From contig PARB01000084.1 of the NCBI GenBank assembly GCA_002709505.1, positions 1 to 34,642 on the forward strand: DNA of 34,642 nucleotides, given 5' to 3'. The notes under the pieces were generated by a model. It was not told where the DNA came from. It searched no databases and worked only from the letters and a program-made list of their open reading frames with translations. This stretch comes from Paracoccaceae bacterium (lineage in GTDB: Bacteria > Pseudomonadota > Alphaproteobacteria > Rhizobiales > Stappiaceae). The translations under genes were made by a program, and so were the position numbers. Below are positions 1 through 34,642 of this stretch, one piece after another (position 1 is the stretch's first letter; each line of letters begins with the position of its first letter).

Positions 1-174
1 GCCGGGCGCGGCCCCGCTCGGACACAGGCCGACCCGGTCGCCGATCGCGGGAAAGACCGCAAGGCTGTCGATCAGATGGTAGCCATCGGCGCGTTGACCG
101 GTCACATGCAGCGCGTAGTTGAGTTTCGCCCGCGCCAGGCGCGCGTGAGCGGTCGGTCTCGCGGTCTCGGTCAT
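1..174 (-). CDS. ispE: 4-diphosphocytidyl-2-C-methyl-D-erythritol kinase, N-terminal part
   Basis: This is the first 58 codons of a gene that leaves the window at base 1. It is missing from simple frame lists because it has no stop here. The start reads [20 protein letters not shown] and continues [18 protein letters not shown], which matches the GHMP-kinase N-terminus of IspE (AKxNxxLHVxGxRxDGYHxLxS). IspE phosphorylates CDP-methylerythritol in the non-mevalonate isoprenoid pathway in the cytoplasm. The ATP-binding GHMP motif lies beyond the window. The ATG (172-174) follows the TPR gene's stop by 10 bp on the same strand, so the two probably share a transcript. Identification is firm for the visible part. 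Confidence 0.9.
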
Positions 175-184
175 GCGTCCAGCG

Positions 185-1960
185 TCAGCCGCCGTTGTCT
201 TTCAGGTCCTGTCCGACGGTCGCGGCGGGAATCGCGCCGTCCTCGCGCAGGCCGTTCTCGATCTTGTCGAGGATCTTCGGCAGTTCTTCGGGTTCCGGAT
301 CCAGGTCGCGGGCGTGGTTCCACTGGAAGCGGGCTTCCAGCCGCCGGTCGACCTTCCAGTAGGCGTCGCCGAGGTGATCGTTGATGATCGGATCTTCGGG
401 GCGCAGCGCCACGGCCTTTTCCAGCTCGACGACGGCTTCCTCGTAGCGACCGAGCTTGTAGTAGGCCCAGCCGAGACTGTCGACGATGTAGCCGTCGCGC
501 GGGCGCAACTCCACCGCCTTGCGGATCATGTCGAGCGCTTCCGAAAGTTTCAGGCCGCGATCGACAAGGGAATAGCCAAGATAGTTCAGCACCAGCGGCT
601 GATCGGGGGAAAGTGCCAGCGACTGGCGGAAATCGGCCTCTGCCGGTCCCCAGTCCTTCAGCCGTTCGCGGCAGATGCCGCGGTAGTAGAACAGCGCCCA
701 GTGCTTGGGCTCCGGCTCGGAAATCGTGTCGATGCCCCGGGAATAGATCGCGTCGGCCTCGGCGAACATCTTGTGCGACCGCAGCACATTGCCGAGCGCG
801 GTGACGGCGTCGAGATCGCTCGGATCCTCCTCGACGAGGGCCGAGAGGTGGGCGCGCGATTCGTCCAGTTTCTCGAGCGCATTGTAGTTCAGCCCGATCT
901 GGATCTCTGCGTCGCGCTTCAGCGGCGAGGAGGCCTCGACACCATTGAGGATCGTGATCGAGCGTTCGTATTTCTGCTGCCGGTCGAAGAGGCCGGCCAG
1001 CGCGATGGCGGCAACGTCGGCGTCATTGTCGAGATGGAGCGAGAGCTGCAGGAACACGGCCGCGAGTTCCTCGCCGCCGTCTCGGCCAAGCGCCGCGCCG
1101 AGGCCATAGAGCACTTCCGCCGCCCCGGTGCGCGCATTCTCCGCGATCCGGCCGATGTCCTTGCCGCTTTCGATCAGCTTGCGGGTCTGAACGAGCACAG
1201 GATGGTCCGGCAGGATCATGTCGTATTGGTCGAGAACCTCGTAGGCCTTGTCCGTGTCTCCGGCCTTGGCGAGCGCGCGTGCATAGGCGTCGATCACCCT
1301 GAGTGCGCCGCGGTCGGCCTCATAGGCGGCCTTGAGGTTTTCAAGCGCGTCCTCGTTTCGGCCCGCGTGATCCTGGATGAGGGCGGAATGATAGGCGACG
1401 AAGACGGTGTACCAGTCCGGGCCTTCCAGGGCCGCGATCCGGGCGAGCGCTGCATCGGTCTCGCCGCGTTCCTCAAGCGCCCATGCGGCGACAAGACCGG
1501 AGGTGAGGACCGCGAGCGGCCCGCGACCGCCGTCAGCGAGCAGGGTTTCGCTCAGGTCCGGCTTTCCCGCCCGCAGTGCTTCCACGGCCAGCATCAGCTG
1601 CGCCATGAAGTGGTCGGGCTGCTCGTTCGACAGCCGTTCGGCCAGCACCAGCGCCTCGTCGAGATTGCCGTTGGCCAGCTTCAGCACGAAGGTCCGGTCG
1701 AGGAGATAGGGGTTGCCCGGGTCCTGCTCCAGCGCTTCTCCGAAGAAGGCGGCCGCATTTTCCAGATCGTTGTTCTGACCAGCGAGGCGCCCCGACAGAT
1801 AGCTGCCGCTGAGCGTCATCGGCAGGCCGAATTCCGTGCCGCTTTGGCGAGATTCGGCCTTCGCGGCGACAGGCTGCGCTGCCACCACGGCAGCTGCGAC
1901 GCTCAGTCCGGCAGCGAAAAACAGACGTCGGGCGGACGAAATCGGAGGGTAACGCTTCAT
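185..1960 (-). CDS. Secreted tetratricopeptide-repeat protein
   Basis: The protein has 591 residues from the chosen ATG at 1958-1960. It opens with a signal-peptide-like segment ([20 protein letters not shown], then an Ala/Val-rich stretch ending near AAKA). The rest is almost entirely helical with TPR-like 34-residue units. The clearest are near the C-terminus ([50 protein letters not shown]). An in-frame ATG 48 bp upstream would put a charged segment before the signal peptide and has no ribosome site, so I prefer the inner start. TPR arrays are protein-binding scaffolds. This type often lies next to ispE in Hyphomicrobiales, and its exact role is unknown. It probably acts in the periplasm or at the outer membrane. 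Confidence 0.85.
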
Positions 1961-2266
1961 GGTGTGAGACTTGCTTCCCCTGCTTGCGCACGCTTCGAGA
2001 CGAGTCATGCGACCAGTAACCTAACCGAGGATGGCTTTATTGTGTCCATGCCGCAAGCAGTACCCGCAGCACGGCTGCCGCGGCGTCGGAGCACTGCGAG
2101 ATATGGTGCGCCGAGCCGGAACGGCAACGAGATGGCGCCCGCCTGCGTGTCAAAAAACCTTTGTTTCGTGCACTGCATCATTTAAGTGGGGAGCGTCCGG
2201 TAGGGACGGGCGCCGCGTCCGACTGACGGTTCGCGGGCGTGCCGGCAAAAGAGGGAACTGCGCGCG
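1961..2266. other. Divergent intergenic region, TPR gene / ppdK
   Basis: These 306 bp separate the outward-facing TPR gene and ppdK and must hold both promoters. The stretch is less GC-rich than the genes around 2140-2185. A GAGGGA ribosome site lies about 12 bases before the ppdK ATG. I see no convincing hairpin, repeat, small gene or known operator here. Confidence 0.6.
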
Positions 2267-4953
<2,687 letters not shown>

Positions 4954-4957
<4 letters not shown>

Positions 4958-5910
4958 CCCGTGTGCCGGCAAGCCTGTCGCAGTTGCGCGGGGGCGGCAA
5001 GGCCGCCCTTGCGCGGGCGATCTCGGCGGTCGAGACGCAGGCCGACAGCGCCGAGCTGACCCGCTTCCTCGACGAGGCAACCCGCAACGGGCGGGCGCAG
5101 GTGCTTGGCCTGACCGGTCCGCCCGGCGTCGGCAAGTCGACGCTGACCAACGCGCTGATCCGCGCCTATCGGGGGCGGGGCGAGAGCGTCGGCGTCATCG
5201 CCGTCGATCCGTCCTCCCAAGTGACCGGCGGCGCGCTTCTGGGCGACCGCACGCGGCTCAGCACCGATCCTGCGGATACCGGCATTTTCGTGCGCTCCAT
5301 GGCCGCGCGGGACCGGCTCGGCGGCTTGTCCGATCACGCGATTGCCGCCGTCGTGCTGATGCGCGCGGTGATGGACCGGGTGATCGTGGAATCGGTCGGC
5401 ATCGGCCAGTCGGAATCCGACGTCGCCCATGCGGTCGACACGCTGGTGCTGTGCATCCAGCCCGGCTCCGGCGACAGCCTGCAGTTCATGAAGGCGGGGG
5501 TGATGGAACTGCCCGACCTCGTCGCCGTGACCAAGGCCGACATGGGCGCGCTGGCGCGGCGTGCGCAGGCCGATGTCGCCGGTGCGCTGTCCCTGGCGCG
5601 TCCGGTCGACAGCGACCGGCTTCCGGACGTCCTGACGGTGTCTGCGACCAGCGGCGAGGGGCTCGACGGCCTGGTCGCCGCCTGCGATGCCTTCGGCTTG
5701 CAGGCCGAGCGCAGCGGTCGGATGGCTGCCCGCCGGGCGGTGCAGGAGCGCCATTGGGTCGACGATGCCGTCCGCCGCCGGTTCGGGTCCGTCGGCCATG
5801 GCGCCTGCGATGTCGGGGCCGCGCTGGCTGAGGCCGGCGGCCCGTTTTCCGCGATTGCTTCGCTCGACCGGTCGATGCGCCAAAGGCTCGGACTTACCGA
5901 AACCCGCTGA
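4954..5910 (+). CDS. meaB: MeaB/ArgK-type G3E GTPase (acyl-CoA mutase chaperone)
   Basis: The protein has 318 residues. It carries a Walker A motif GPPGVGKS at residues 55-62, followed by VDPSSQVTGGALLGDRTR, ESVGIGQSE, the base-specificity motif TKAD and a SATSGEG loop. This is the MeaB/ArgK signature. Family members load and protect adenosylcobalamin-dependent methylmalonyl- or ethylmalonyl-CoA mutases using GTP. The ATG overlaps the ppdK stop (4954-4957), and a GGAGGGAGG ribosome site sits inside the ppdK end, so translation is coupled. No mutase gene is in the window. Its 3' end overlaps the convergent glycosyltransferase gene by 17 bp. Family assignment is firm; the mutase partner is inferred. 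Confidence 0.9.
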
Positions 5911-6739
5911 ACGTTTGCGAAAGCGCCGTGCGCAGCCATATGCCCGCCGGCGATCCCAGTCCGCGCAGCAGGGACTGCCGGCTGTCCCGGTAGACGCTGC
6001 TGCCGGGAACGTCGCGTCCGGGCTCGTTTGCGTCGAAGATCGAATAGACCAGCCCGAGTGCGGCGGCATTGACCACCCGGTGCGGATGACGGCTCCGGAT
6101 TTCCTCGATCGCGCGCGTATAGGCGATGGGGCCGGTGGCGACGATGGTCGGAGTGAAGCCGACCCCGCAGCGCACCGGGTCATAGGTCTCCAGATTGTGC
6201 CAGACGCGTTCGATCACGGCCTTGAGAAAGGGGTGACGCGGCGCGCAGACGATGTGCCACTGCTGGAATTCCCGCTCAATGCCGTGGTCGGGCCAGTGCC
6301 CCCAGCCGTGGTAGCGAGAGCCGGGCGCATCGTCCCATGTCGACAGCAGGAAGGCATCGTCCGCCTCAAGGATTTCCGAAAGCGGACGGCGGGCGGTCGA
6401 CTTGATGTCGAGATAGACGCCGCCGGATTCGTAAAGCCGCACATAACGGAAGATATCCGCCTTCGCCGCGCCGTAGTCGTCGTGGATGCGGTCGAAGAGC
6501 GCGAGGCGCTCCCGGCCGCAGGCTCTCAGGATGCAGTCCCGCACGTCGTCGTCATCGTAGAGACGATGCTCCCAGCCGGGATTGAGCGCCTTGAGATTTT
6601 CGATGTTGCGCTGAAGGGCCGGGGTGAGGGCGGACCGGCAGCGGATGGTCTGGTGAATGACGTTTGAAACGAGCACAGCGCGCAATCCGGCAATGAAATA
6701 CCTGGGCCGGACGTTAGGGAATGCGCGGATTGCTGGCAA
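5894..6739 (-). CDS. Glycosyltransferase with sugar-binding DxD-like motif (Gly_transf_sug/capsular type)
   Basis: The frame encodes up to 281 residues. The diagnostic core is VIHQTIRC near residue 28, NPGWEHRLYDDDD near 53-65, AAKADIFRYVRLYESGGVYLD near 91-111, then DIKS. This is the pattern of the OCH1/capsule-type sugar transferases that use UDP- or GDP-sugars. The usual second Asp of DxD is replaced by Lys (D-I-K), a variant I believe occurs in related capsule-type proteins. The start is uncertain: the 6739 codon is TTG, and a GTG at 6674-6676 would begin just before VIHQ. The substrate cannot be told. The gene stands alone, converging on meaB. Confidence 0.75.
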   Translation of the reverse strand: MPAIRAFPNVRPRYFIAGLRAVLVSNVIHQTIRCRSALTPALQRNIENLKALNPGWEHRLYDDDDVRDCILRACGRERLALFDRIHDDYGAAKADIFRYVRLYESGGVYLDIKSTARRPLSEILEADDAFLLSTWDDAPGSRYHGWGHWPDHGIEREFQQWHIVCAPRHPFLKAVIERVWHNLETYDPVRCGVGFTPTIVATGPIAYTRAIEEIRSRHPHRVVNAAALGLVYSIFDANEPGRDVPGSSVYRDSRQSLLRGLGSPAGIWLRTALSQTFSGFR

Positions 6740-6771
6740 CCGCCCCGACGCGTTTCTGGTGCGCCCGCGAT

Positions 6772-9033
6772 CTAGGCGGAGAGCGAAATCGCGGTTGCCG
6801 GTTCCCGGTCGGCGGCAAGGCGCGCCTCGGTCGCGGGAACATGGTCCGGCGCGACCGGACGGGACAGGTAGAACCCCTGCAGCCGGTCGCAGTTGGTGCG
6901 CTGCAGGATCGCCGCCTGCTGGCGCGTCTCGATGCCTTCCGCGACCACCTTCATACCGAGCGCCTCGCCGAGATCGATGATCGTGGAGAGGATCGAATGG
7001 GCGTGGGGCGCGACCTCGAGATCGGCGATGAAGCTGCGGTCGATCTTCAGCGTGTCGAAGGGGAAGCGGCGCAGATAGCTCAGGCTCGAATAGCCGACGC
7101 CGAAATCGTCCAGCGCGACGCGGATGCCCATCTCCTGCACCTGCTTGAGCGTGGACAGGATGTTGCTGTCGTTGTCGGCGAAGACCGTTTCCGTGACCTC
7201 GATCTCCAGCCGGGTCGGCTCGAAGTCGCAGGCCTCCAGCGTCTCGCGCAGGTCGTCGATGAACCGCGGGTGGCGGAACTGGCTCGGGGAGACGTTGACG
7301 GCCAGCCCCAGATGCGGCCAGGCGGCGGCATCCTGGCAGGCCTTGCGCAGGACATAGAGGCCGAGTTCGTTGATCAGGCCGATCTCCTCTGCGATCGGGA
7401 CGAAGACGCTGGGGCTGACCGGCCCCATCTTCGGATCGGTCCAGCGCAAAAGCGCCTCGACCGACAGCATGGTCGCGCCGTCGATGGTGGTCTGCGGCTG
7501 ATAGACGACCGTCAGCCGGTCCTGTCCGATCGCGTCGCGCAGCGCATGGGCGAGATTCTCGCGCGTGCGGACATGTTCTTCCATGCTGATGTCGAAGAAG
7601 GCCCAGCGGCCGCGGCCCGCGCCCTTGGCCGAATAGAGCGCGATGTCCGCCTTGCGCAGCAACTCGCCCATCGACAGGCTGTCTTCCGGGGCGATCGCCG
7701 CGCCGACGCTGAGGCTGACGTGCAGGTGGGTCCCGCTGATGTACATGGGAATCGCGAAACGGTCCTGGATGCGGCGCAGCACATGCTCGATCGCCGTGCG
7801 CGATGCATAGCCGGGAAGGATCAGGGCGAATTCGTCGCCGCTGATGCGGGCAAGGGTCGCCTCGTCAGGCACCAGCACGCGCAGGCGGCGGGCGGCCTCG
7901 CGGATGACTTCGTCGCCGGCGGCGTGGCCAAGCGTGTCGTTGATGTCCTTGAAATGGTCGAGGTCGATGTAGATGACCCCGATGAGGCCCTTGTCGGCGT
8001 CCCAACCGGCGAGTTCGTCACGGAAGCGGTTGGCGAAGAAGTCCCGGTTCGCCAGCCCGGTCAGGCTGTCGTGCAGGGCGGCGTGCTGGGCGCGGGCCTC
8101 GCTCTCGGCAAGGCGCCGGGTGTTCTGGCGGGTGTAGAACAGAACGACGCCGGTCAGGACCGCGATCGTTGCGGCGAGAAAGAACAGCACCGGCCCGACG
8201 CCCGACAGGATCTTGGTCCCCGGCTTGTTCGCCGTCCAGGTCAGATAGCCGATCGGCACGCCGAGCGGCGAGCGCAGGTCGAAGGTTGCCGTATCGCGGG
8301 GCCGGTCCGCGCCCGGGGACGCGCTCAGGCCGTTGACGCCGGAGCGGGTCTCCAGGGCGAACAGGCGGGAGCCTTGCAGCTTCTTCACGCTGACCAGAAC
8401 CGCCGGCGGACGCCGGTTGGCGACGAACTGCTTGAGCTCGGGGGAAATGGCGGTGACGGAGACGAAGGCAAGCTCGCCCTCGTGGAGCGCAAAACCGGTT
8501 TCGTGAATGGAGCGCGTGAAGCCGTTGAGCGGGCGTTCGATCACGAAGAGCCCGGAGGGAAGCGGCCTGAAGCCGGTGATGAACTTCGCCCGGGTGCGGG
8601 CGATCAGCGGCCAGATGCTCGACACCAGCGCGCGACTCTGGTCTGTGTCGATCTGCTGGCCGCGCAACGCATTGTAGATCGGCTCGCCGGTCTCGCCGAC
8701 GATGACGGTCTGGTCATGTCCGTGATTGGCGTAGAGCCAATGTCCGAGATTGGCGTCGAGCCACTGGGTGCTGACGCTGAGCGGGCGCGTGTAGTAGTCG
8801 GCAAGATCCCAGACCGCCGCGCCTTCCTGTTCCTTTGCCAGGATTTCAAGCTGGAGTTGCGTGCTGCCGCGCAGGAGCTGGCGCTCGCTTTCCAGCGCCG
8901 CGTGATCCGCGGACTGGGACGTATAGGCGATCAGGGCAACGGAAAAGGCGATTGCAAGCAGAACCAGTCCCACCACCGGGAACAGGATTGCATTTGCAAG
9001 TCTCGCGCCGTTGTCCGTCTTGTTGATTGTCAT
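6772..9033 (-). CDS. Membrane GGDEF-EAL protein with periplasmic CHASE4-like sensor
   Basis: The protein has 753 residues. TM1 lies at about residues 12-38 and TM2 at about 268-292, flanking a roughly 230-residue periplasmic domain that resembles CHASE4. A GGDEF domain follows with the active-site motif as SGDEF (398-402). There is no RxxD inhibitory site at the usual position. The EAL domain is intact: EALLRW (E526), NVSPSQF, EVTET, DDFGVGYSSLSYL, KIDRSF, VAEGIET and QGFYLSRP. All phosphodiesterase residues are therefore present, so c-di-GMP hydrolysis is likely, while the cyclase half may be active or regulatory. The start has a GAGG site 5-8 bases upstream. A TTAA-N6-TTAAC element lies about 65-80 bp upstream. 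Confidence 0.93.
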   Translation of the reverse strand: MTINKTDNGARLANAILFPVVGLVLLAIAFSVALIAYTSQSADHAALESERQLLRGSTQLQLEILAKEQEGAAVWDLADYYTRPLSVSTQWLDANLGHWLYANHGHDQTVIVGETGEPIYNALRGQQIDTDQSRALVSSIWPLIARTRAKFITGFRPLPSGLFVIERPLNGFTRSIHETGFALHEGELAFVSVTAISPELKQFVANRRPPAVLVSVKKLQGSRLFALETRSGVNGLSASPGADRPRDTATFDLRSPLGVPIGYLTWTANKPGTKILSGVGPVLFFLAATIAVLTGVVLFYTRQNTRRLAESEARAQHAALHDSLTGLANRDFFANRFRDELAGWDADKGLIGVIYIDLDHFKDINDTLGHAAGDEVIREAARRLRVLVPDEATLARISGDEFALILPGYASRTAIEHVLRRIQDRFAIPMYISGTHLHVSLSVGAAIAPEDSLSMGELLRKADIALYSAKGAGRGRWAFFDISMEEHVRTRENLAHALRDAIGQDRLTVVYQPQTTIDGATMLSVEALLRWTDPKMGPVSPSVFVPIAEEIGLINELGLYVLRKACQDAAAWPHLGLAVNVSPSQFRHPRFIDDLRETLEACDFEPTRLEIEVTETVFADNDSNILSTLKQVQEMGIRVALDDFGVGYSSLSYLRRFPFDTLKIDRSFIADLEVAPHAHSILSTIIDLGEALGMKVVAEGIETRQQAAILQRTNCDRLQGFYLSRPVAPDHVPATEARLAADREPATAISLSA

Positions 9034-29347: not shown

Positions 29348-29779
29348 ATGACAGTCGCATCGATTTTGAATCAGAAGGGCCGGGACGTGGTGACGGAGCG
29401 CGCCGGTACCAGCTTGCGCGAGATCTGCTCGATCCTGGGCACGCGCCGGATCGGCGCCATCGTGATCACCGGGCAGGACGGCAAGATCGAGGGCATCATC
29501 TCCGAGCGGGATGTGGTGCGGGCGATTTCTCAGCACGGGGTCGATGCGCTCGACCGCCCGGTCTCCGATTTCATGACGGCCTCGGTGGTGACCTGCGAGC
29601 CGCAGGAGACCGTGAACTCGGTCATGGCGCGGATGACCGGCGGCCGCTTCCGCCACGTACCGGTGGTGCAGGACGGAAAGCTGGCCGGCCTGATCTCGAT
29701 CGGCGACGCGGTGAAGCACCGCATGGCGCAGATCGAGCGCGAGGCGGAGGACATGCGCAACTACATTGCCATGACGTGA
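29348..29779 (+). CDS. Two-CBS-domain protein
   Basis: The protein has 143 residues formed almost wholly of a CBS pair (about 8-65 and 73-133). GTRRIGAIVIT, GIISERDVVRAIS, VSDFMTASVVTCEP, GRFRHVPVVQDGKLAGLISI and GDAVKHRM are typical. The pair (Bateman module) binds adenine nucleotides. As a stand-alone protein it probably senses energy state or regulates a partner. GGGAGGAGG precedes the ATG. A strong terminator follows. Confidence 0.94.
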   Translation: MTVASILNQKGRDVVTERAGTSLREICSILGTRRIGAIVITGQDGKIEGIISERDVVRAISQHGVDALDRPVSDFMTASVVTCEPQETVNSVMARMTGGRFRHVPVVQDGKLAGLISIGDAVKHRMAQIEREAEDMRNYIAMT

Positions 29780-32275: not shown

Positions 32276-33394
32276 ATGTTGTCCAGCAGTTTACCGGACG
32301 TTGAAATACGCCTGGCCCAGATGTCCGACCTTCCCGACCTGTTGCGCCTTGAAAACGCGTGCTTTTCCGGCGACCGCATTTCGCGGCGCAGCTTTCGCCG
32401 TTTTCTGGAAAGCGCCGGCGCCTCCTGTCTCGTCGCCGAGGCAAACGGGCAGATGCTTGGATATGCGCTGCTGCTGTTTCGCTCCGGCACGGCGCTGGCG
32501 CGGCTCTATTCGTTTGCCGTCGATCCGGCAGCGCGCGGCTCCGGCCTGTCGCGCCGGTTGCTTGCCGCCGCCGAGGCGGACGCCTTCGAGCGCGAGCGCA
32601 TCCTGCTGCGGCTGGAGGTGCGCGAGGACAATGCGCCGGCCCGTGCGCTCTACGAGCGGGCCGGCTATCGGCGCCACGGGCGGGTTGCGGATTACTATGA
32701 GGACGGCACGGCCGCGATCCGCATGGAAAAGCTGCTGCACGACGAGGCGGCGCCGCCTTCCGCTGTGCCCTATTTTTCGCAGACGACCGATTTCACCTGC
32801 GGCCCCGCCTGCCTGATGATGGCGCTGAAGCACCTCGGTGCGGTCGAGACGCTCGACGAGCGGCTGGAGCTGCGCCTGTGGCGGGAAACGACGACGATCT
32901 ATCTGGCTTCCGGACATGGCGGCTGCGGCCCCTTCGGCATGGCGGTCGCCGCCGCCCATCGCGGTGTCGAGGCCGAGGTGCGGCTGGCGCCGGGCGGGCA
33001 TCTGTTCCTGTCGTCGGTGCGCGATCCGGACAAGCGCCGGGTGATGGAGATCGTCCAGGACGACTACCGGGGCGAAGCCGCCCGGCTCGGCATCGACAGC
33101 ACCGGCGAGCCGCTCTCGGCCCCGGACCTCGCCGAAGCGGTGCGCGGCGGGGCGCTGGCGATCGTGCTGATCTCCGAGTACCGGATGCTGGGGCGGCGCG
33201 GCCCGCATTGGGTGCTGGTGCAGGGGCAGGATCCGCGCCACTTGTTCATTCACGACCCCTGGCTCGGCTACGAGGGCTATGAAACGCCGCAGGATGCTGC
33301 CAACCTGCCGATCCCTTTCGCGGAATTCGATCGCATGGCACGCTGGGGCAAGCCGCCGGTCCGCGCTCAGATCCTCCTCAAGAAGGCACTGTAG
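32276..33394 (+). CDS. GNAT acetyltransferase fused to C39-like peptidase domain
   Basis: The protein has 372 residues. Residues about 9-153 are a RimI-like GNAT domain (FAVDPAARGSGLSRRLL carries the acetyl-CoA loop, and NAPARALYERAGYRRHGRV is the typical end). Residues about 163-370 are a C39/papain-like peptidase domain: VPYFSQTTDFTCGPACLMMA with Gln169 and Cys175, His311 (GPHWVLVQG) and Asp327 (IHDPWLG), so the triad is complete. There is no ABC transporter domain, so it is not a bacteriocin exporter. The stop is three bases before the next ATG. Together they look like a peptide/amide-forming and editing unit; substrates are unknown. Confidence 0.88.
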   Translation: MLSSSLPDVEIRLAQMSDLPDLLRLENACFSGDRISRRSFRRFLESAGASCLVAEANGQMLGYALLLFRSGTALARLYSFAVDPAARGSGLSRRLLAAAEADAFERERILLRLEVREDNAPARALYERAGYRRHGRVADYYEDGTAAIRMEKLLHDEAAPPSAVPYFSQTTDFTCGPACLMMALKHLGAVETLDERLELRLWRETTTIYLASGHGGCGPFGMAVAAAHRGVEAEVRLAPGGHLFLSSVRDPDKRRVMEIVQDDYRGEAARLGIDSTGEPLSAPDLAEAVRGGALAIVLISEYRMLGRRGPHWVLVQGQDPRHLFIHDPWLGYEGYETPQDAANLPIPFAEFDRMARWGKPPVRAQILLKKAL

Positions 33395-33397
33395 GTC

Positions 33398-34642
33398 ATG
33401 GCCACATGGGTCGTACTCGTCGACAATCCCAAGGATGTCTCCAACGCCGACACGCCGCACAAGGTGATGAGCGTGCGCGACTACCTAATGCGGCCGAAGC
33501 TTTTCACCGGCACGCATCCCAATATCATCAACCTGTCGCGCTCCTACGCCTATCAGGGCGCGGGCTATTACGCCTCGCTGCTGGCCGAGGCGCGCCAGCA
33601 CCGCGTGCTGCCCAACGTCGAGACGATGATCGAGCTGTCCCGCAAGGGACTCTACCGTCATGCGCTCCCGGAGCTCGAGGACAGCCTCAACCGCTGCCTC
33701 GCCAAGGCGGACAAGGACGCCGTCGGCGAGCGCATCCTCGTGTGCCTCGGCTACAGCAGCGTCGCCGCGCTGGAACCCTTCGCGCGTCTGCTGTTCGACT
33801 GGTACCGCGCGCCGATCCTCGAGGTGACGCGCACCTCCGCCGACTGGTCGGCGATCGCCCGCATCCGTACGGTGTCGATTTCCGATCTCGATGCGGAGCG
33901 CCGCGCCTTCATGATGGAGAGCCTGGAGCGCTACACCCATCGCGCCTGGCGCGCGCCGAAGCAGCGCGTGCCGATGAAATATTCGCTCGCCGTGCTGTCC
34001 GACCCGAAGGAGGAGCTGCCGCCCTCCAGCCAGGCGTCGCTGCGCCACATGGCCAAGGTCGCCGCGCGTCAGGGGGTGGAACTCGTGCCCATCGGCAAGG
34101 GCGACCTCGACCGGCTGGCGCAACATGACGCGCTCTTCATCCGCGAGACGACGAATATCGACAATCACACCTATCGCTTCGCCCGCCGCGCGACGCAGGA
34201 GCGCATGCCGGTGATCGACGATCCGGTCTCCATGATCCGCTGCACCAACAAGGTCTATCTGGCCGAACTGATGGAAAGCCACGGCGTGCCGGTGCCGCGC
34301 ACCGCGATCCTTTCCAGCGTCAAGGAGGCGGCCGGCCTTGAACAGCGGCTCGGCTCGCCGGTGGTCCTCAAGATCCCGGACGGTTCCTTCAGCCGGGGCG
34401 TCTTTCGCGTTTCGGGCGAGGCGGAGATCGCGAAAAAGCTGAAACTGCTGCTCGACGACAGCGACATCATCATCGCCCAGGAATATTGCCCGACGGAATT
34501 CGACTGGCGCATCGGCGTGCTCGACGGCGAGCCTTTGTTCTCCGTGCAGTATCTGATGGCGAAGAAGCACTGGCAGATCGTCAAGCACGAGGACGGCAAG
34601 CAGGCCAAGGAGGGCAGCTTCCGCTCCGTGTCGCTGGCCGAA
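33398..34642 (+). CDS. RimK-like ATP-grasp ligase with N-terminal RLAN domain (3' partial)
   Basis: 415 codons are open to the window edge with no stop. The N-terminal part (ATWVVLVDNPKDVSNADTPH to about residue 155) fits the RLAN domain. The ATP-grasp part begins near residue 280 (MIRCTNKVYLAELMESHGVP then VPRTAI), with PVVLKIPDGSFSRGVFRV (Lys325) and AQEYCPTEFDWRIGVLDGEP. RimK-type enzymes ligate amino acids to carboxylates with ATP. The metal-binding C-terminus lies beyond the window. It follows the GNAT-C39 gene by three bases, so the two are surely cotranscribed. A GCS2-type ligase gene may lie further on; this cannot be checked here. Confidence 0.87.
   Translation, partial: MATWVVLVDNPKDVSNADTPHKVMSVRDYLMRPKLFTGTHPNIINLSRSYAYQGAGYYASLLAEARQHRVLPNVETMIELSRKGLYRHALPELEDSLNRCLAKADKDAVGERILVCLGYSSVAALEPFARLLFDWYRAPILEVTRTSADWSAIARIRTVSISDLDAERRAFMMESLERYTHRAWRAPKQRVPMKYSLAVLSDPKEELPPSSQASLRHMAKVAARQGVELVPIGKGDLDRLAQHDALFIRETTNIDNHTYRFARRATQERMPVIDDPVSMIRCTNKVYLAELMESHGVPVPRTAILSSVKEAAGLEQRLGSPVVLKIPDGSFSRGVFRVSGEAEIAKKLKLLLDDSDIIIAQEYCPTEFDWRIGVLDGEPLFSVQYLMAKKHWQIVKHEDGKQAKEGSFRSVSLAE

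What the first reader, a model, noticed from the sequence alone, without database searches (positions are those of the whole stretch)
32276..34642. GNAT-C39 peptidase fusion coupled to an RLAN/RimK-like ATP-grasp ligase
Three enzyme activities (acyltransferase, thiol peptidase/amidase with a complete Cys175-His311-Asp327 triad, and ATP-dependent amide ligase) sit in two genes three bases apart. Computational work on ATP-grasp amidoligases (as I recall, by Aravind and colleagues) predicted similar neighbourhoods, but I know of no proven product. The set could make an acylated oligopeptide or tag a protein. The peptidase half has no ABC exporter, unlike bacteriocin C39 proteins, so it may act as an editing or deconjugating enzyme in the cytoplasm.
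Basis: partly seen in the sequence, partly recalled or inferred. Interest (0 to 1): 0.75.

Follow-up and report, generated by a model that had tools for sequence, protein, structure and literature searches.

The report
Acetyltransferase–peptide-ligase pair with optional peptidase
Two neighbouring genes encode an N-acetyltransferase fused to a papain-like peptidase and an ATP-driven amino-acid ligase; the partnership is widespread in related bacteria, probably makes a small capped peptide, and its product is unknown to me.

Summary
Window 32276-33394 encodes a GNAT-DUF3335 (papain/C39-like) fusion with the stated triad. A ligase gene, RLAN plus RimK-like ATP-grasp, follows three bases later and is cut by the contig end; an intact 486-aa copy lies in a same-genus genome (411 of 415 shared residues identical).

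In 397 genomes of the phylum RLAN occurs in 81, DUF3335 in 63, both in 62; in 60 of those 62 the genes lie within 3 kb, in four arrangements. The interpretation needs correcting: the constant partner of the ligase is the GNAT, not the peptidase. A GNAT of one subfamily lies within 1.5 kb of 141 of 143 ligase genes examined; DUF3335 is in only 91 of the 143 stretches and changes state about 20 times on the ligase tree. One lineage fuses GNAT to the ligase.

No GCS2 gene follows the intact copy, but another RLAN operon type (ligase, GCS2, N-formylglutamate amidohydrolase) exists elsewhere. A canonical RimK is a separate gene in the same genome. No conserved precursor peptide was found.

Best reading: GNAT and ligase make a short N-acyl-capped peptide, as N-acetylglutaminylglutamine synthetase does; the peptidase is an optional trimming or recycling enzyme.

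The parts
32276..32752 (+). GNAT (N-alpha-acetyltransferase-like) domain of the fusion; E114 and Y126 have the spacing of the RimI general base and acid
   Evidence: Pfam; profile hits to N-terminal acetyltransferase structures; Foldseek top hits RimI/Ard1; E 42 of 42, Y 41 of 42 in the GNAT alignment
32753..33394 (+). DUF3335 papain/C39-like thiol hydrolase domain (Q169, C175, H311, D327), to the TAG stop
   Evidence: Pfam; conservation; stop codon
33398..34642 (+). RLAN-RimK-like ATP-grasp ligase, truncated by the contig end (415 of about 486 residues)
   Evidence: intact copy L033:6210-7670
33473..33919 (+). RLAN domain (PF14401) of the ligase, with N45, G56, Y57, S60, R66 and P72 invariant in 38 ligases
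33980..34642 (+). RimK-type pre-ATP-grasp and ATP-grasp region (incomplete in the window)
   Evidence: RimK-family match over residues 239-393; start by inference from the secondary structure of the Roseibium model
33380..33386 (+). AAGAAGG, possible ribosome-binding site of the ligase gene, inside the end of the fusion gene
   Evidence: sequence; inference

Best explanation
The two genes encode a GNAT plus RLAN-ligase module that builds a short N-acyl-capped peptide (or capped amino-acid conjugate) in the cytoplasm. Proposed steps: the ligase activates a carboxylate as acyl phosphate with ATP and joins it to the amine of an amino acid; the GNAT acylates the free alpha-amine of the starter or the product; where present, the DUF3335 thiol hydrolase trims, recycles or releases the product. 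Shown: domain identities, conserved catalytic residues, near-constant GNAT-ligase coupling, and that the peptidase is an optional add-on. Inferred: all substrates, the order of steps, that the product is a small peptide rather than a modified protein, and the role of the peptidase.
For: 141 of 143 RLAN ligase genes have a GNAT of one subfamily within 1.5 kb, and no hit lies farther out in the fetched DNA. A GNAT-RLAN-ATP-grasp fusion of 656 aa exists; the three genomes of that genus with RLAN hits have open frames of 660-667 codons there (one of the three was fetched). GNAT plus RimK-type ATP-grasp in one chain is also the make-up of an Ngg homologue, and Ngg makes the dipeptide of the osmolyte NAGGN (passages of PMC8070244). 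GNAT profile and fold lie nearest to N-terminal acetyltransferases and keep a Glu/Tyr pair 12 residues apart as RimI does (Glu103, Tyr115; passage of PMC3347575). The ligase model lies nearest to RimK, ArgX and LysX structures. Three residues that hold the glutamate chain in P. aeruginosa RimK (R64, R189, N262; passage of PMC10092738) align with R249, R371 and N453, invariant in 38 of 38 (numbers read off the HMMER alignment by hand). No conserved precursor gene was found nearby.
Against: I found no biochemistry for any member. RimI-like plus RimK-like chemistry fits protein modification about as well. Of the other RimK contacts, S68 falls on a variable position (253: S 18, A 13, N 4, G 2, Q 1 of 38) and S7, R8 and S14 were not aligned; R371 and N453 are probably general ATP-grasp residues (inference), so the glutamate hint rests mainly on R249. 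Similarity to Ngg is at superfamily level (31% over 58 residues) and Ngg lacks RLAN. With the single window sequence the first GNAT hits in the PDB are uncharacterised acetyltransferases. In a P. aeruginosa plasmid copy no GNAT gene is annotated within 4 kb; in G227 the GNAT-DUF3335 gene is on another contig.
Confidence: 0.42

Rival explanations
1. [quoted passage not shown]
For: Nearest folds include the protein modifiers RimI/Ard1 and RimK/LysX; RimB cuts the glutamate tail that RimK adds (passage in PMC12239564), a precedent for a ligase-protease pair.
Against: No target gene keeps a place beside the pair. The S6-type RimK is a separate gene in the same genome, and in 61 relatives RimK presence is unrelated to RLAN presence (11 of 28 with RLAN, 9 of 33 without, Fisher p 0.41). 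The would-be eraser is absent from 52 of 143 ligase stretches, although some of those genomes hold it elsewhere (G066).
Confidence: 0.27
2. Degradation or salvage module: the peptidase and GNAT detoxify or inactivate an imported peptide or amino-acid analogue and the ligase conjugates the fragments.
For: Some related GNATs are resistance enzymes (NCBIfam hits far below cut-off); the peptidase is the variable part.
Against: No transporter or resistance gene keeps a place beside the pair; GNAT profile similarity is highest to N-terminal acetyltransferases. The broad presence within families does not look like an acquired resistance gene (inference).
Confidence: 0.12
3. Ribosomally made peptide pathway (graspetide or microviridin type): ATP-grasp cross-linking, GNAT capping, C39 leader removal.
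For: Microviridin clusters join ATP-grasp ligases with a GNAT (recalled); C39 peptidases cut leaders (passages of PMC8939145); the graspetide ligase PsnB is among the top 20 fold matches of the ligase (rank 16).
Against: No conserved small ORF within 700 bases: of 1354 ORFs of 20-110 aa at 75 non-redundant loci the best cluster spans 3 loci, against 2 loci among 1088 ORFs in a control zone 1.5-2.2 kb away. The DUF3335 domain is not fused to an ABC transporter.
Confidence: 0.06
4. Poly-alpha-glutamate or other homopolymer synthesis as in RimK, with the GNAT capping the chain and the peptidase limiting its length.
For: RimK makes free poly-glutamate (passage of PMC12239564); R249, R371 and N453 match glutamate-chain contacts of RimK.
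Against: The extra RLAN domain, with its own invariant residues, suggests another substrate; RimK contact S68 is not conserved here and S7, R8, S14 were not aligned.
Confidence: 0.13

Closest known systems
RLAN/RimK-like ATP-grasp neighbourhoods of Iyer et al. 2009 (Mol Biosyst 5:1636; not held, known by recall and by citation in PMC10318531)
   Same: PMC10318531 says DUF3335 members are often fused to GNAT domains that might act as peptide ligases or acetylate, citing that paper (passage). By recall that work also named RLAN and predicted peptide or metabolite synthesis.
   Different: I could not read it, so I cannot say whether it already separates GNAT-type from GCS2-type operons, shows the GNAT-ligase fusion, or shows that the peptidase is dispensable.
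N-acetylglutaminylglutamine synthetase Ngg (TIGR03103) of the NAGGN osmolyte operon
   Same: GNAT plus RimK-type ATP-grasp in one unit, and a peptidase gene in the P. aeruginosa operon.
   Different: No RLAN in the Ngg homologue scanned, only superfamily-level similarity. Ngg over cut-off coexists in 21 of 28 RLAN genomes among 61 relatives, but the window's own draft genome has none over cut-off.
RimK (S6:glutamate ligase) and RimB
   Same: ATP-grasp core, some active-site residues, idea of a ligase with an opposing peptidase.
   Different: No Rimk_N match in this ligase, an extra RLAN domain, a thiol rather than aspartic peptidase, a near-constant GNAT partner; RimK proper is elsewhere in the genome.
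RimI / Ard1 N-alpha-acetyltransferases
   Same: Fold, Glu and Tyr pair.
   Different: Below the RimI cut-off (82.9 against 86.4 bits); linked to the RLAN ligase.
C39 leader peptidases of bacteriocin exporters
   Same: Papain-like Cys-His-Asp site; weak profile match to a PCAT peptidase (E 0.013).
   Different: Own Pfam family, no ABC transporter domain, fused to GNAT.
RLAN-GCS2-FGase operons (G405 L099; Legionella adelaidensis plasmid)
   Same: RLAN ligase, and in G405 a C39-like peptidase gene beside it.
   Different: GCS2 and N-formylglutamate amidohydrolase genes instead of the GNAT.

Membership tests
RLAN ATP-grasp ligases (PF14401) | RLAN domain over the curated cut-off | tested here: met
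   140.8 bits against 25
DUF3335 (PF11814) | domain over cut-off with papain-like catalytic residues | tested here: met
   254.8 bits against 25; C and H 34 of 34, D 30 and E 4 of 34
RimK, S6 glutamate ligase | Rimk_N pre-ATP-grasp domain (PF18030) | tested here: not met
   Own-genome search finds one Rimk_N, on contig C66, not the RLAN ligase; Pfam scan of the ligase lists none at 1e-3
RimK, S6 glutamate ligase | TIGR00768 family cut-off | tested here: not met
   57.2 bits against 143.4, on the truncated protein
RimK, S6 glutamate ligase | glutamylates ribosomal protein S6 | not testable with these tools
   needs enzyme assay
RimI, S18-alanine acetyltransferase | TIGR01575 cut-off | tested here: not met
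   82.9 bits against 86.4
Ngg, N-acetylglutaminylglutamine synthetase | TIGR03103 full-length match over cut-off | tested here: not met
   fusion scores 20.4 bits against 569; the ligase has no listed match
Ngg, N-acetylglutaminylglutamine synthetase | acetylates glutamine and forms a dipeptide | not testable with these tools
   needs enzyme assay
C39 bacteriocin exporter peptidase | peptidase fused to or beside an ABC exporter | tested here: not met
   no such domain in the fusion; one ABC-ATPase-like cluster (by eye) has 7 genes in 5 of 31 families with no fixed place
Graspetide RiPP pathway | linked precursor peptide | tested here: not met
   no conserved small ORF in 75 non-redundant loci; by sequence only, fast-evolving precursors could be missed
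GCS2-type RLAN operon | GCS2 gene beside the ligase | tested here: not met
   not visible in the window; in intact relative L033 the next gene is a class II tRNA synthetase; own-genome GCS2 is on contig C103

The most novel reading that the evidence does not exclude
A common, uncharacterised bacterial pathway makes a class of N-acyl-capped short peptides with an RLAN ligase, primed by one of two interchangeable enzymes (usually a GNAT, rarely a GCS2-type ligase with N-formylglutamate amidohydrolase), and equipped in many lineages with its own thiol hydrolase for turnover. The product would be a new family of intracellular metabolites.
Probability: 0.3. Interest if true: 0.75.

Novelty: new member of a known kind. 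Interest (0 to 1): 0.5.

Why it matters
A ligase family found in about a fifth of the sampled genomes of its phylum (81 of 397) has no product that I could find. The near-constant GNAT-ligase partnership, the fusion form and the optional peptidase turn a vague prediction into a two-enzyme assay with clear controls. A product would be a widespread but unseen metabolite or modification.

Tried and rejected
RLAN as a second glutathione-synthetase-like N-terminal domain: the motif looked similar by eye, but hhalign gave probability 3.2% at best (12 GshB sequences, low diversity) and about 0.2% with a partly mistranslated set; dropped as unsupported.

GCS2 partner at this locus: GCS2 occurs in 56 of 61 relatives; in the 28 with RLAN it is on another contig or more than 1 Mb away (compared by eye); dropped for this locus.

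RimK replacement: RimK and RLAN presence are unrelated in 61 relatives. The association of Ngg with RLAN (21 of 28 against 7 of 33) is probably shared ancestry inside the window's own family; not used as evidence.

Phage carriage: no match among 50,697 phage records. The viral structure library was not searched and VIA alignment was unavailable. Foldseek of the whole fusion shows only acetyltransferase matches in the 50 rows listed, so the DUF3335 half has no structural neighbour from that search; a profile of that half found only weak matches (PCAT peptidase E 0.013; butirosin BtrH-like E 0.049).

Literature: Iyer 2009 could not be opened. Searches on RLAN/ATP-grasp/RimK (7), DUF3335, PF11814, GNAT-C39 (11), RimK-like with C39 and GCS (12), Iyer's title words (31), RefSeq-like names, PF14401 and RLAN domain (66), and RimK with GCS2 and FGase (91) listed no functional study of this pair that I recognised. 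I saw listings, starts of abstracts and passages of seven papers only; subscription papers are not covered.

Biases: one search kept the best 80 of at least 589 relatives, so these are close relatives, by title mostly alphaproteobacteria. From, 9 of the 20 stretches entered; in all 67 stretches, 63 with a ligase. The 143 loci include two identical ligase pairs. In one search two rows (L177, L183) were dropped, L064 was labelled by hand, and three rows labelled 'none' (L168, L169, L184) do have a GNAT by profile. In one search two loci (L094, L187) count as lacking DUF3335 within 1.5 kb but have it at 1.8-1.9 kb. by BLAST gave 50 GNAT-C39, 27 GNAT and 3 none of 80; by profile all 80 have the GNAT. 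Counts use coordinates copied by hand; one search uses presence lists copied by hand.

Full report
What is there. The window is an entire contig (C84, 34,642 bases) of a draft genome, 85% complete; the nearest named relatives of the ligase are alphaproteobacteria such as Roseibium, so I take it for one (inference). Its last 2.4 kb carry two genes on the + strand. The first (32276-33394) joins a GNAT domain to a DUF3335 domain, a papain/C39-like family. The second (33398 to the contig end) starts three bases after the stop and holds an RLAN domain followed by a RimK-type ATP-grasp. It is cut at 415 residues. In a same-genus genome the pair is complete: the ligase is 486 aa, 411 of the shared 415 residues are identical, and 370 of 372 in the fusion. 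Codon differences are mainly synonymous (38 against 6), as expected of genes under protein-level selection. Other genes checked nearby are housekeeping: YidD, GTP cyclohydrolase I and phosphoribosyl-AMP cyclohydrolase in the window, and a class II tRNA synthetase after the ligase in the relative.

Are the enzymes intact? In 34 fusions C and H do not vary and position 327 is D (30) or E (4); Q169 does not vary. The GNAT keeps E114 (42 of 42) and Y126 (41 of 42), 12 residues apart, the spacing of the RimI general base Glu103 and acid Tyr115 (passage in PMC3347575). In 38 ligases K285, K325, R371, E451, N453 and N455 do not vary, and neither do the six RLAN residues that I counted. AlphaFold models are confident (90.4 and 91.4 mean pLDDT). 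The ligase matches RimK, ArgX and LysX first, with D-Ala-D-Ala ligases and the graspetide ligase PsnB also in the top 20; the fusion matches RimI and Ard1 through its GNAT. The GNAT profile finds N-terminal acetyltransferases first; the single window sequence finds two uncharacterised acetyltransferases first.

Is the pairing real? In 61 close relatives all 25 genomes with DUF3335 are among the 28 with RLAN. In 397 genomes of the phylum RLAN is in 81, DUF3335 in 63 and both in 62 (hypergeometric p 3e-54, a figure that ignores kinship). In 60 of the 62 the two lie within 3 kb: 29 with the fusion upstream in tandem, 21 divergent, 7 with the fusion downstream, 3 convergent; in 2 they are unlinked. 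Four arrangements in different lineages mean that the linkage was made or kept repeatedly, which is better evidence than the raw count. In 67 stretches of up to 18 kb from 31 genome families, the pair is the one cluster present throughout; the next largest cluster has 8 genes in 7 families at distances from 0.1 to 4.5 kb.

What is the core? The RLAN loci without DUF3335 resolve this. With a profile of the GNAT, 141 of 143 ligase loci (63 unnamed, 80 named) have this GNAT within 1.5 kb, and no hit lies farther out in the fetched DNA. DUF3335 is within 1.5 kb in 89, a little farther in 2, and absent from 52 stretches, of which 50 hold the GNAT; some of these genomes hold DUF3335 elsewhere (for example G066). 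On the ligase tree the DUF3335 state needs at least 20 changes, 15 of them forced by well-supported branches, so the peptidase has been lost or gained often. In genome G351 (same phylum, another class) a lone GNAT follows the ligase and a GNAT-DUF3335 gene starts about 1.5 kb beyond the ligase's end. In family f43 the GNAT is fused in front of RLAN and ATP-grasp (656 aa), while a GNAT-DUF3335 gene lies convergently beside it. So the GNAT-ligase couple is the enzyme system and the peptidase an accessory.

Exceptions. In G227 the GNAT-DUF3335 gene is on another contig. In G405 the ligase sits between a C39-like peptidase gene (Peptidase_C39_2) and genes for GCS2 and N-formylglutamate amidohydrolase; a Legionella adelaidensis plasmid has the same ligase-GCS2-amidohydrolase order. 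A P. aeruginosa plasmid copy has no annotated GNAT within 4 kb.

How it probably works. GNAT plus RimK-type ATP-grasp in one polypeptide is the make-up of an Ngg homologue; Ngg acetylates glutamine and forms the dipeptide bond of the osmolyte NAGGN, and its P. aeruginosa operon also holds a peptidase gene (passages of PMC8070244). By analogy the present couple should make a small N-acyl-capped peptide. Three residues that contact the glutamate chain in P. aeruginosa RimK map on invariant residues here (R64 to R249, R189 to R371, N262 to N453), while S68 maps on a variable one; this hints at an amino-acid or peptide carboxylate. The DUF3335 domain would trim or recycle. The chemistry of the domains is established family knowledge; substrates and order are inference. 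Protein tagging is the main rival and cannot be excluded.

Is it a known family? It is a member of the RLAN and DUF3335 families. It is not RimK (no Rimk_N; a RimK proper sits on contig C66), not RimI by cut-off (just under), not Ngg by cut-off, not a bacteriocin C39 protein, and shows no graspetide precursor. The association of DUF3335 with GNAT is in print (PMC10318531, passage, citing Iyer 2009, which I recall but could not open). My literature searches listed no functional study of the pair in an open-licence library. I therefore file it as a new member of a predicted but uncharacterised kind; what is added here is the counted GNAT-ligase coupling, the fusion, the dispensable peptidase and the alternative GCS2 operon, any of which the unread paper may already contain.

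Noticed in passing
L099 (G405) 2884-6984; L203 (Legionella adelaidensis plasmid) 41-3232: A second RLAN operon type: RLAN ligase with GCS2 and N-formylglutamate amidohydrolase, plus a C39-like peptidase gene in G405, and no GNAT seen.
   Followed up: partly
L112 (G230, contig C15), also G280 contig C39: Extra DUF3335 copies away from RLAN in genomes that also hold the normal pair; the one in L112 mapped had no GNAT hit, and two genes near it fall in a cluster that looked like ABC ATPases by eye.
   Followed up: no
G068 contig C2 203188-203802 (L113): The only DUF3335 genome of 63 without RLAN; a short 233-235 aa protein without GNAT.
   Followed up: no
L204 (P. aeruginosa plasmid pZYPA1927) 3791-5380: An RLAN ligase near a glutamate/aspartate ABC transporter, pagP and an aminotransferase, with no annotated GNAT near it.
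   Followed up: no
L094 (G351) 3722-7750: Ligase, then a lone GNAT, then a separate GNAT-DUF3335 gene: two related GNATs at one locus.
   Followed up: partly
G027 contig C8 14084-14534 and contig C47 2137-3785: Both the RLAN ligase and the Ngg gene of this draft genome are broken into pieces, perhaps assembly errors.
   Followed up: no
window 29348-29779: A 143-aa ORF whose sequence looks like a CBS-domain-pair protein; not tested.
   Followed up: no
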